The notes under the pieces are model-generated. The model was given only the letters and a program-made list of their open reading frames with translations. It searched no databases and was not told the DNA's origin. From Thermococcus sp. LS1 (GTDB taxonomy: Archaea > Methanobacteriota_B > Thermococci > Thermococcales > Thermococcaceae), in the NCBI RefSeq assembly GCF_012027395.1, contig NZ_SNUJ01000002.1, positions 1 to 64,000 of the forward strand: DNA of 64,000 nt. The letters run 5' to 3'. The position numbers were made by a program, and so were the translations under genes. Positions 21,227-38,918 of this stretch are shown here, one piece after another (the stretch's first letter is position 1; each line of letters begins with the position of its first letter).

Positions 21227-22609
21227 ATGAAGACCCTGATTCTTGCCGGTGGTAAGGGGACACGTCTCTGGCCCCTGAGCAGGGAGCTGATGCCAAAGCA
21301 GTTCATGAGGATGTTTGATGACTATTCCCTCTTTCAGAAAACGGTTCAGAGGGCGTTGATGTTCTCAAAACCAAACGAAATATTCATCGTGACTAATAAG
21401 AAGTACAAGTTTCGTGTCCTTGACGATTTAAGAGAACTCGGCCTGGAGCTCCCAGAAGAGAATCTCCTCCTTGAGCCCGTGGGAAAGAACACCCTCCCCG
21501 CCATTTACTGGGGAATAATGAGAATCGAAGAAATCTTCAGAGACTCTATTGTGGCGGTCCTCCCGTCAGATCACCTGATAGAAGCGGATAAGAACTACGA
21601 GAAAGCCTTCAAGAGTGCCGAGAGGCTTGCTCATGATTACCTCGTAACCTTTGGGATAAAACCAACGAGGCCGCACACCGGCTATGGCTACATAAAGCCG
21701 GGGGAAAGGCTTGAAGATGGCTACCGCGTTGCGGAGTTCAAGGAGAAGCCGGATTTGGAGACTGCCAAACGCTACGTTGAGGAAGGCTATTACTGGAACA
21801 GCGGCATGTTTATGTTCGATACTGAGCTCTTCATTGATGAAGTGAAGAAGCTAGCTCCCGAAATCTACTCTGCTTTTGAAGAGGCTGCAACTATCCGGGA
21901 AGCCTACGAACGGGTTCGGGATATCTCCGTTGACTACGGGATAATGGAGAAAACCGATAAAGCCGCCGTCGTCCCTCTCAACGTCTACTGGAATGATCTC
22001 GGGAGCTTCGACGCTATCTACGAGGTTCTCGAGAAGGACGAAAACGGCAACGCTGTGAAGATACGGGGAAGGAAGGGCTATCACGTCGGCATCGATTCGA
22101 GGAACAACCTCATAATGACGGAGCGTTTGACCGCTACAGTTGGTGTCGAGGATTTGATAATCATTGACACTGGCGATGCCCTCCTCGTCGCCCATCGCGG
22201 TGATAGTCAGAAAGTCAGGAAGGTTTACAAAAGGCTCAAGGAGAAGGGTGATGAGAGGGTCTTTGTTCATAGAACCGCTTATCGCCCCTGGGGAAGCTAC
22301 ACCATCCTCGAGGAGGGCGAGCGCTACAAGATAAAGCGCCTGACAGTTCTGCCTGGCAAAAAGCTTTCCCTGCAGATGCACTATCACAGGAGCGAGCACT
22401 GGGTCGTGGTGAGGGGAACGGCTAAGGTTTTCATTGACGGTGAGGAGATACTCCTCAGACCGGGGGAGAGCACTTTCATTCCCGCGGGCGTAGTTCACAG
22501 GCTTGAGAACCCCGGAAAGGTCGTCCTTGAGGTCATTGAAACGCAGATAGGAGAATACCTTGGTGAAGATGATATAGTCCGCTTTGATGACGACTTCGGG
22601 AGGGAGTGA
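21227..22609 (+). CDS. manC: Bifunctional mannose-1-phosphate guanylyltransferase/mannose-6-phosphate isomerase
   Basis: A 460-residue fused enzyme. Residues 1-330 are a GDP-mannose pyrophosphorylase with LAGGKGTRLWPLSRELMPKQ at the N terminus and AVLPSDHLI and FKEKPDLETA further on. Residues 345-460 are a type II mannose-6-phosphate isomerase cupin (LSLQMHYHRSEHWVVVRGTA). It makes GDP-mannose for glycoprotein and lipid glycosylation and for compatible solutes. I chose the ATG at 21227 after GGGTGGTGCTCA. The phosphomannomutase-like gene downstream would supply mannose 1-phosphate. Confidence 0.93.
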   Translation: MKTLILAGGKGTRLWPLSRELMPKQFMRMFDDYSLFQKTVQRALMFSKPNEIFIVTNKKYKFRVLDDLRELGLELPEENLLLEPVGKNTLPAIYWGIMRIEEIFRDSIVAVLPSDHLIEADKNYEKAFKSAERLAHDYLVTFGIKPTRPHTGYGYIKPGERLEDGYRVAEFKEKPDLETAKRYVEEGYYWNSGMFMFDTELFIDEVKKLAPEIYSAFEEAATIREAYERVRDISVDYGIMEKTDKAAVVPLNVYWNDLGSFDAIYEVLEKDENGNAVKIRGRKGYHVGIDSRNNLIMTERLTATVGVEDLIIIDTGDALLVAHRGDSQKVRKVYKRLKEKGDERVFVHRTAYRPWGSYTILEEGERYKIKRLTVLPGKKLSLQMHYHRSEHWVVVRGTAKVFIDGEEILLRPGESTFIPAGVVHRLENPGKVVLEVIETQIGEYLGEDDIVRFDDDFGRE

Positions 22610-33843: not shown

Positions 33844-33909
33844 GGGCTCGGAGGGTGTTCACGTCATCATGTTGCATCGTCTCAGTATGCTTGCTATTCG
33901 TCATCGCCC
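33844..33909 (-). ncRNA. Candidate C/D box guide RNA
   Basis: Read on the minus strand: GGGC (33909-33906), GATGA as a C box core, 15 nt, CTGA (D' box, 33885-33882), 11 nt, ATGATGA (perfect C' box, 33870-33864), exactly 12 nt, CCGA (D box with one change), then GCCC (33847-33844), which can pair with the first GGGC. The guide before D' is CGAATAGCAAGCATA; the guide before D is CGTGAACACCCT. A TATA-like box (AACTTTAAAAAGAG, minus strand 33940-33927) is centred 25 nt before the first base, the archaeal spacing. The C and D boxes are imperfect and no rRNA target was checked. Confidence 0.5.
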
Positions 33910-36834: not shown

Positions 36835-36964
36835 CGTCACCACCGAAAGGCATATCTTTCAAGCATTTATAAAATCTCCCGGCCGATGCGCTTACGCTCC
36901 CTTCGGGCTGAACGTTTGGCCCGGCACCGATGGGGGGTGATGAGGGCCACCACTCCCGAGGCCA

Positions 36965-37601: not shown

Positions 37602-38867
37602 ATGACCCAGCTCTTCAACTCCAAGCTCTGTGCCGTCTGCAAGGGCAGGAAGCTCCTCTGCGGCAGGCCCACCTGTCCGATTCTCGAGAGGTTTAGGGTA
37701 GCCCGGAAGGTAGAGGAAAAGCTCAATAAGCGCCACCTTTTTGGCTCTTCCCCGCCGAGCATCTTCGTTGGGGAGTACGGCTATCCTAAGGTTCGCATAG
37801 GCCCTCTTGTGCCACCGATTGAGGGAGATACCAGTCACCTCGACAGTCCCATGAAGTGGGAGGACAAGACGATAAGGGACATCCTTTACTACCGCTCGCT
37901 ATTGGTTATGGGCGAGACGAAAGCAGACGTCCACGTAAGGAGGAGCGGGAGAATACTCGGCGAGGTTCAGGAGCTGGCAATGTCGATAAAGCCCGTTGAC
38001 AGCGAGATTTTGCTGAAGAAAAAGCCCGTTCTCAAAGTCCTCCCAAGCGAGTTTGCCCCGCCGATAGGGCCGAAGGCGGAGCTTTTGGACTTTGAGCTCA
38101 CGGAGAATCCCCGGATTCCGAGGAGGACCGACTATGTCGTGAGCGACGAGCTGAAGGCGGAGCAAGCAATAATGAGGCTTTACAACTGGGGCTTTGACGA
38201 GTACTATATTATAAGGCTCCTCTCCGCGGGACTTCTCGGCGTTGACAAGAGGCTTGTTCCCACAAGGTGGAGCATCACCGCCGTTCAGGACACGATAGGG
38301 AATAACCTGAGGCGTGAAATTCTGAGCTATCCAGAGATAAACGACTACGAGGTCTACTTTTACCGCTTCCTCGGAAACCGCTACGCCGTTCTGCTTATGC
38401 CTGAGAGCTATGCCTTCGAGCTTTTGGAGGTCTGGCTCAAGGGCTCGCTCTTCGGAAGCGATGAACCAAGCGTCATCCACGACTACGAGGACTTCCGCGG
38501 AAGAAAGGAGTACGTCAAGGAAACGGCCGGAGCCTACCACGCGGCTCGTCTGAGTGTTCTTGAAGCTCTGAGAGCGAGGAGGAGGCAGGCAAGGATAGTA
38601 GTTTTCCGCGAGGTTACCCCCGAGTACTACGCCCCCGTTGGTGTCTGGCAGATAAGGTTGGGAGTCAAAAAGGCCATGAACAACCTCATCGGTCACTTCT
38701 CAACGCTGAACGAGGCGCTAGAGGCCATAAAGCGTCGCCTTGAGCATCCGTTCGAGAAGTACCTCACGAGGAGCTACATACTTGGCAGCTTAGCGAGGCA
38801 GAAAACTTTAGACGAGTGGCTCGGAAAGAATTTATACCTGATTAACAAAGGGAACTACGGTGGATGA
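37602..38867 (+). CDS. Nre-family DNA repair protein
   Basis: A 421-residue protein of the archaeal Nre (DUF650/DUF651) family, which is linked to repair of DNA crosslinks in Haloferax. The N terminus has a Cys-rich zinc-like motif (CAVCKGRKLLCGRPTCPI). Conserved blocks include PPSIFVGEYGYPKVRIGPLV, RILGEVQELAMSIKPVDSEI and RRLVPTRWSITAVQDTIGNN-like VPTRWSITAVQDTIG. Near the C terminus QKTLDEWL fits a PCNA-interacting (PIP) box, as reported for other Nre proteins. The stop codon and last codons overlap the 5' end of a candidate guide RNA. Confidence 0.9.
   Translation: MTQLFNSKLCAVCKGRKLLCGRPTCPILERFRVARKVEEKLNKRHLFGSSPPSIFVGEYGYPKVRIGPLVPPIEGDTSHLDSPMKWEDKTIRDILYYRSLLVMGETKADVHVRRSGRILGEVQELAMSIKPVDSEILLKKKPVLKVLPSEFAPPIGPKAELLDFELTENPRIPRRTDYVVSDELKAEQAIMRLYNWGFDEYYIIRLLSAGLLGVDKRLVPTRWSITAVQDTIGNNLRREILSYPEINDYEVYFYRFLGNRYAVLLMPESYAFELLEVWLKGSLFGSDEPSVIHDYEDFRGRKEYVKETAGAYHAARLSVLEALRARRRQARIVVFREVTPEYYAPVGVWQIRLGVKKAMNNLIGHFSTLNEALEAIKRRLEHPFEKYLTRSYILGSLARQKTLDEWLGKNLYLINKGNYGG
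38828..38838 (+). promoter_or_regulatory. TATA box inside the nre gene end, placed for a small RNA
   Basis: GAATTTATACC (38828-38838) has its centre 25 nt before the first base of the candidate guide RNA at 38858. It encodes Asn-Leu-Tyr of the Nre protein as well, so its presence might be chance. Confidence 0.45.
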
Positions 38868-38918
38868 CGATCACTCCATCCCACTGAAGTATGATGACTG
38901 CACGTCAGGCCGACACCG
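38858..38918 (+). ncRNA. Candidate C/D box guide RNA overlapping the nre stop
   Basis: CGGTG (38858-38862), GATGA as C box core (includes the nre TGA), 16 nt, CTGA (D', 38884-38887), AGT, ATGATGA (perfect C', 38891-38897), exactly 12 nt (CTGCACGTCAGG), CCGA (D with one change, 38910-38913), then CACCG, complementary to the first five bases. The first guide is CGATCACTCCATCCCA. The plan, including the CCGA box and the 12-nt spacing, is the same as in the candidate at 33844-33909. A TATA box lies 25 nt upstream. No rRNA target was checked. Confidence 0.55.

What the first reader, a model, noticed from the sequence alone, without database searches (positions are those of the whole stretch)
38858..38918. 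Candidate C/D guide RNA sharing bases with the nre stop codon
A complete box order (GATGA, CTGA, ATGATGA, CCGA) with exactly 12 nt between C' and D and 5-nt complementary ends lies across the nre stop. A TATA box inside the nre coding end is 25 nt upstream. The TGA of nre is part of the C box, so one sequence serves a protein end and an RNA start. The layout, including the non-standard CCGA D box, repeats at 33844-33909. Two independent copies of the same plan make chance less likely.
Basis: partly seen in the sequence, partly recalled or inferred. Interest (0 to 1): 0.6.

Follow-up and report, generated by a model that had tools for sequence, protein, structure and literature searches.

The report
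C/D guide RNA sR7 beside nre
The spot is a genuine small RNA gene that steers a methyl group onto two nearby sites of the 23S ribosomal RNA; it is the Thermococcus version of the known archaeal guide RNA sR7, and in some species its first few bases double as the stop codon of the neighbouring gene, an arrangement already known for many archaeal guide RNAs.

Summary
Window 38858-38918 (+) is a box C/D methylation-guide sRNA whose C box (ATGACGA, 38864-38870) contains the nre stop TGA (38865-38867). It matches Rfam sR7 (RF01310; 35.7 bits, 1.3 below the cut-off; E 7e-7), and both guides agree. Orthologues lie downstream of nre in Thermococcus and three sister genera; in Pyrococcus the same sRNA sits at the end of an OsmC-like gene. 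The guides pair with the genome's own 23S rRNA at A842 (9 bp) and G864 (10 bp), 22 nt apart. Where Pyrococcus 23S has U instead of C in the D target, its guide has A instead of G. The terminal stem covaries at all four pairs. A TATA box inside the nre coding end is held by rare codons (17/17 TTA, 5% background). The second locus, 33844-33909, is on the minus strand and is sR3, an unrelated family targeting 23S U2648 (E. coli U2552). Stop codons inside C boxes are a published, common arrangement, so the finding is real but ordinary. One side result may be new: the 'CCGA' D box is half of a U·U-to-C·C k-turn covariation across Thermococcus C/D sRNAs.

The parts
38858..38918 (+). box C/D sRNA gene, sR7 orthologue (mature RNA about 38859-38917)
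   Evidence: Rfam RF01310 35.7 bits, E 7e-7; conserved in Thermococcaceae
38859..38862 (+). 5' strand of terminal stem (GGTG); lies in the last two sense codons of nre (GGT GGA, Gly-Gly)
   Evidence: pairs with 38914-38917; compensatory changes at all 4 pairs
38864..38870 (+). C box ATGACGA; contains nre stop TGA 38865-38867
38871..38883 (+). D' guide region; 9 Watson-Crick pairs with own 23S around A842
38884..38887 (+). D' box CTGA
38891..38897 (+). C' box ATGATGA
38898..38909 (+). D guide; 10 Watson-Crick pairs with own 23S around G864
38910..38913 (+). D box CCGA (CTGA in most relatives); forms C.C at k-turn 3b:3n with C38868 of the C box
38914..38917 (+). 3' strand of terminal stem (CACC)
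38831..38836 (+). TATA box inside nre codons AAT-TTA-TAC, probable promoter of sR7
   Evidence: 17/17 Leu codons are TTA (5.3% background), 28/28 Asn codons AAT (15.6%) in orthologues
37602..38867 (+). nre (Nre_N, Nre_C); conserved domain ends about residue 406 of 421
   Evidence: Pfam PF04894, PF04895
38934..40055 (+). downstream phosphodiesterase-family gene; sR7 lies in its 5' leader
   Evidence: Pfam PF01663
33844..33909 (-). second C/D sRNA, sR3 orthologue; D guide to 23S U2648 (E. coli U2552), D' guide to C2587 (E. coli about 2491)

Best explanation
The site encodes the archaeal box C/D sRNA sR7. It is transcribed from a TATA box embedded in the 3' end of nre, or as part of nre read-through, and is trimmed to about 59 nt. 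Boxes C/D and C'/D' form kink-turns that bind L7Ae, Nop5 and fibrillarin. The D' guide then directs 2'-O-methylation of 23S A842, and the D guide of 23S G864 (about E. coli 726 and 748). The nre TGA stop happens to be bases 2-4 of the C box. This is a tolerated economy of sequence, because nre's last residues are free to vary. Shown here: the sequence anatomy, conservation, guide complementarity, guide-target covariation, stem covariation and codon bias at the TATA box. Inferred: expression, processing, protein binding and methylation.
For: Rfam sR7 match with both guides aligned; Pyrococcus members score 57-73 bits, above the gathering threshold. Hits in 67 of 94 Thermococcaceae genomes; exact D-guide/D-box pattern in 62 of 94, with zero hits of the reversed control pattern. 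Near-gapless alignment of 35 distinct orthologues: guides and boxes nearly invariant. Own 23S pairing 9 bp at A842 and 10 bp at G864; of 2000 shuffled guide pairs none gave such sites within 100 nt. Pyrococcus 23S reads CTGATGTGCA where Thermococcus reads CTGACGTGCA, and the guides read TGCACATCAG and TGCACGTCAG. Terminal stem: 4 of 4 pairs with double changes, 27 such cells against 5.5 in shuffles. Promoter codons. Published frequency of stop codons in C boxes (PMC7994747).
Against: The window copy scores 1.3 bits below Rfam's gathering cut-off. No transcript or methylation data for this genome. Some relatives have lost or decayed the sRNA (G015, G029, G033, G059), and genus g4 gave no hit at all, so it is dispensable. 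Each guide alone is not significant against shuffles; the case rests on the pair of sites, conservation and covariation.
Confidence: 0.96

Rival explanations
1. The TATA box and k-turns act mainly as a leader element of the downstream phosphodiesterase gene (an L7Ae-bound regulatory k-turn), with the guides incidental.
For: sR7 lies 16 nt upstream of the downstream start codon, in the same orientation. L7Ae-bound leader k-turns are known (PMC5539422, PMC6298567). Some snoRNA-like elements in T. kodakarensis 5' regions were suggested to be cis-regulatory (PMC4247193).
Against: A leader k-turn would not need 10-nt guides conserved and covarying with 23S. The sequence just downstream differs between species. 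Pyrococcus carries the same RNA in another neighbourhood.
Confidence: 0.03
2. Chance: the motifs arise from Nre coding needs and base composition.
For: Short boxes such as TGATGA and CTGA are common by chance; one stop codon is shared.
Against: No such pattern in 60 simulated windows. Most of the RNA lies after the stop. The pattern is conserved across five genera while the Nre tails change.
Confidence: 0.01

Closest known systems
sR7 (Rfam RF01310), Pyrococcus box C/D sRNA
   Same: Both guides (CTCCATCCCA, TGCAC[AG]TCAGGC), box order, spacing and length
   Different: Gene neighbour is nre, not an OsmC-like gene; one guide base changed together with the 23S target; C box ATGACGA and D box CCGA instead of ATGATGA and CTGA; score just below the Rfam cut-off
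Archaeal C/D sRNA genes whose box motif carries the upstream stop codon (Tripp et al. 2017, as reviewed in PMC7994747)
   Same: Same arrangement: 25% of C/D genes carry the upstream stop codon, nearly half of these in the C box
   Different: Nothing in kind; here an embedded TATA box is also held by codon choice
sR3 (Rfam RF01133), for the second site 33844-33909 (-)
   Same: Both guides TAGCAAGC and GTGAACACCC conserved from Pyrococcus to Thermococcus
   Different: Longer D'-C' spacer in most Thermococcus, D box CCGA, below the Rfam cut-off (30.1 against 41 bits)

Membership tests
archaeal box C/D methylation-guide sRNA | C, D', C', D boxes in order, 11-13 nt between C' and D | tested here: met
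archaeal box C/D methylation-guide sRNA | terminal stem next to the C/D kink-turn, kept by compensatory change | tested here: met
   4/4 pairs with double changes, 91% cells paired; slid controls 26-65%
archaeal box C/D methylation-guide sRNA | guide complementary to rRNA or tRNA with the N+5 target nucleotide paired | tested here: met
   23S A842 (9 bp) and G864 (10 bp); guide-target covariation
archaeal box C/D methylation-guide sRNA | stable about 50-65 nt RNA bound by L7Ae, Nop5 and fibrillarin | not testable with these tools
   no RNA-seq or binding data for this genome
archaeal box C/D methylation-guide sRNA | 2'-O-methylation at the predicted rRNA sites | not testable with these tools
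   needs RiboMeth-seq or mass spectrometry
sR7 (RF01310) | both guide sequences of the family | tested here: met
sR7 (RF01310) | Rfam gathering score 37 bits | tested here: inconclusive
   35.7 bits, E 7e-7 in a 171-base search; seven genomes of genus g3 are over the cut-off and other Thermococcus orthologues fall just below it
sR3 (RF01133), second site | both guide sequences and box order | tested here: met
   Rfam score 30.1, below its cut-off of 41

The most novel reading that the evidence does not exclude
The 'non-standard' CCGA D box is half of a lineage-wide covariation. In Thermococcus C/D sRNAs the k-turn 3b:3n pair has switched repeatedly from U.U (UGAUGA/CUGA) to C.C (UGACGA/CCGA) or G.C (UGAGGA/CCGA). 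Under published k-turn rules (3b=C allows metal-ion folding, U.U is intermediate) this would change how these guide RNAs fold before L7Ae binds.
Probability: 0.75. Interest if true: 0.4.

Novelty: new member of a known kind. Interest (0 to 1): 0.27.

Why it matters
It adds two guide-RNA genes (sR7, sR3) to the reading of this genome, with predicted 23S methylation sites. It gives a clean case of a guide RNA keeping pace with its rRNA target across genera while its host gene, stop-codon overlap and even its second guide change. The k-turn covariation makes a testable point about RNA folding in hyperthermophiles.

Tried and rejected
First target scan used the wrong rRNA strand; repeated on the correct strand. 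One 20-genome 23S search failed and was rerun with 14. tRNA targets were not scanned, because both guides already had rRNA targets. Rejected: that 33844-33909 is a copy of the same RNA (different guides and targets). Rejected: that the stop-codon overlap is functionally required (15 of 34 distinct loci have the stop 10-16 nt upstream of the C box). The primary papers Tripp 2017 and Lui 2018 are not held, so their numbers come from the review PMC7994747. The T. kodakarensis C/D table of PMC4247193 is in a supplement that could not be opened, so expression of the T. kodakarensis sR7 could not be confirmed.

Full report
What is there. Window 38858-38918 (+) reads CGGTG G ATGACGA TCACTCCATCCCA CTGA AGT ATGATGA CTGCACGTCAGG CCGA CACCG: C box, D' guide, D' box, C' box, 12-nt D guide, D box, closed by complementary ends. 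The nre ORF (37602-38867; Pfam Nre_N and Nre_C) ends with TGA at 38865-38867, which is bases 2-4 of the C box ATGACGA. A C/D regular expression with a 4-bp terminal stem finds exactly two sites in the window, this one and 33844-33909 on the minus strand, and none in 60 Markov sequences of the same composition.

What it is. Rfam sR7 (RF01310) matches 38860-38915 with 35.7 bits (cut-off 37, E 7e-7), and both guides align. sR7 hits occur in 67 of 94 Thermococcaceae genomes at E<=0.001. An exact D-guide/D-box pattern occurs in 62 of 94, with no hit for the reversed control pattern. In genus g1 (the window's own) and in the g2, g5 and g6 genomes inspected, the RNA follows nre. In genus g3 the same RNA follows, or overlaps, the 3' end of an OsmC-like gene, with the stop codon near or in the C' box in the two loci read. 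In g5, g6 and g2 the D guide is kept but the D' guide is different. In G015, G029, G033 and G059 the RNA is decayed or gone. Genus g4 gave no hit.

Evidence that it guides methylation. By the N+5 rule the D' guide pairs 9 bp around own 23S A842 and the D guide 10 bp around G864. None of 2000 shuffled guide pairs gave sites of that length within 100 nt of each other. Alignment to an E. coli 23S, allowing for that record's annotation starting 3 nt late (my correction, from the known length of 2904), places them near E. coli 726 and 748. In six g3 genomes 23S reads GCTGATGTGCA and the sR7 guide TGCACATCAG. In the other genera 23S reads GCTGACGTGCA and the guide TGCACGTCAG. Guide and target have changed together. 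The terminal stem has double changes at all four pairs (GGTG/CACC against ACCG/CGGT), with 27 compensatory cells against 5.5 in shuffles and 91% of cells paired.

The overlap with nre. In 34 distinct nre-sR7 loci of the window's genus the stop codon is inside the C box in 19 and lies 10-16 nt upstream in 15. Nre tails differ (GG*, IDQ*, VEK*, VLT*), while the RNA is nearly invariant. So the overlap is allowed, not required. It is also a known arrangement: 25% of archaeal C/D genes carry the upstream stop codon and nearly half of these have it in the C box (PMC7994747 citing Tripp et al. 2017).

Promoter. TTTATA at 38831-38836 sits in codons AAT-TTA-TAC about 25 nt before the RNA. In 30 orthologues all 17 leucines at this place are TTA (background 5.3% in the same genes) and all 28 asparagines are AAT (15.6%); the 13 isoleucines are all ATA (38.9%). 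The species are related, so these are not independent events, but such codon choice in GC-rich genes points to a promoter held inside the coding end. The same element could also serve the downstream gene.

The second site. 33844-33909 is on the minus strand and is an sR3 orthologue (RF01133: 30.1 bits here; 49-53 bits in three g3 genomes). Its D guide GTGAACACCC with boxes is in 88 of 94 genomes and pairs 10 bp plus one G-U with own 23S U2648, the equivalent of E. coli U2552 in the A-loop. Its D' guide pairs 8 bp at C2587.

Why both sites carry CCGA. In a C/D k-turn the second U of UGAUGA faces the U of CUGA (the 3b:3n pair). Across C/D-like hits in related genomes I counted U.U 45, C.C 32, C.U 15 and U.C 1; by family majority 12 U.U, 11 C.C and 1 C.U. 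With G in the C box the D box is CCGA in 9 of 10 Thermococcus hits (counted by eye). Both sites in the window have ATGACGA with CCGA. A published survey reports a strong U:U preference in archaeal C/D k-turns (PMC5689011), and the 3b:3n pair is known to set folding in metal ions (PMC4382518). I found no report of this C.C switch in the held library, which is not complete.

Verdict. Real, well supported and of a known kind: an sR7 orthologue with a known style of gene overlap. Expression, processing and methylation are inferred, not shown. The k-turn covariation is the part most worth following up.

Noticed in passing
38868 and 38911; 33844-33909 (-); genome-wide: C box UGACGA goes with D box CCGA and UGAUGA with CUGA across Thermococcus C/D sRNAs: covariation of the k-turn 3b:3n pair (U.U, C.C, G.C).
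   Followed up: partly
36919-36961 (+): Partial match to C/D family sR47 (29.4 bits, cut-off 40) with C' GTGATGA, D CCGA and GGCC/GGCC ends, but a degenerate C box (about 36884) and a TATA-like TTTATAAAA upstream; perhaps a third, diverged C/D sRNA.
   Followed up: partly
21824-21881 (+): Weak match to snoU82P (21.8 bits) inside an apparently coding stretch; probably chance.
   Followed up: no
L147, L146, L144, L148 (nre 3' ends of G015, G029, G033, G059): sR7 decayed or lost after nre; in G015 the nre frame runs on through the remnant (GGDHPADL*).
   Followed up: partly
L131-L134 and L130: D guide kept but D' guide replaced (GTTCGCTAGGT in g5/g6, another in g2): half of the guide RNA has been swapped.
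   Followed up: no
L024, L025: In genus g3 sR7 overlaps the 3' end of an OsmC-like gene, its D' guide coding the last residues (EPPSQLNK*, EPPSKLSK*) and the stop lying at the C' box.
   Followed up: partly
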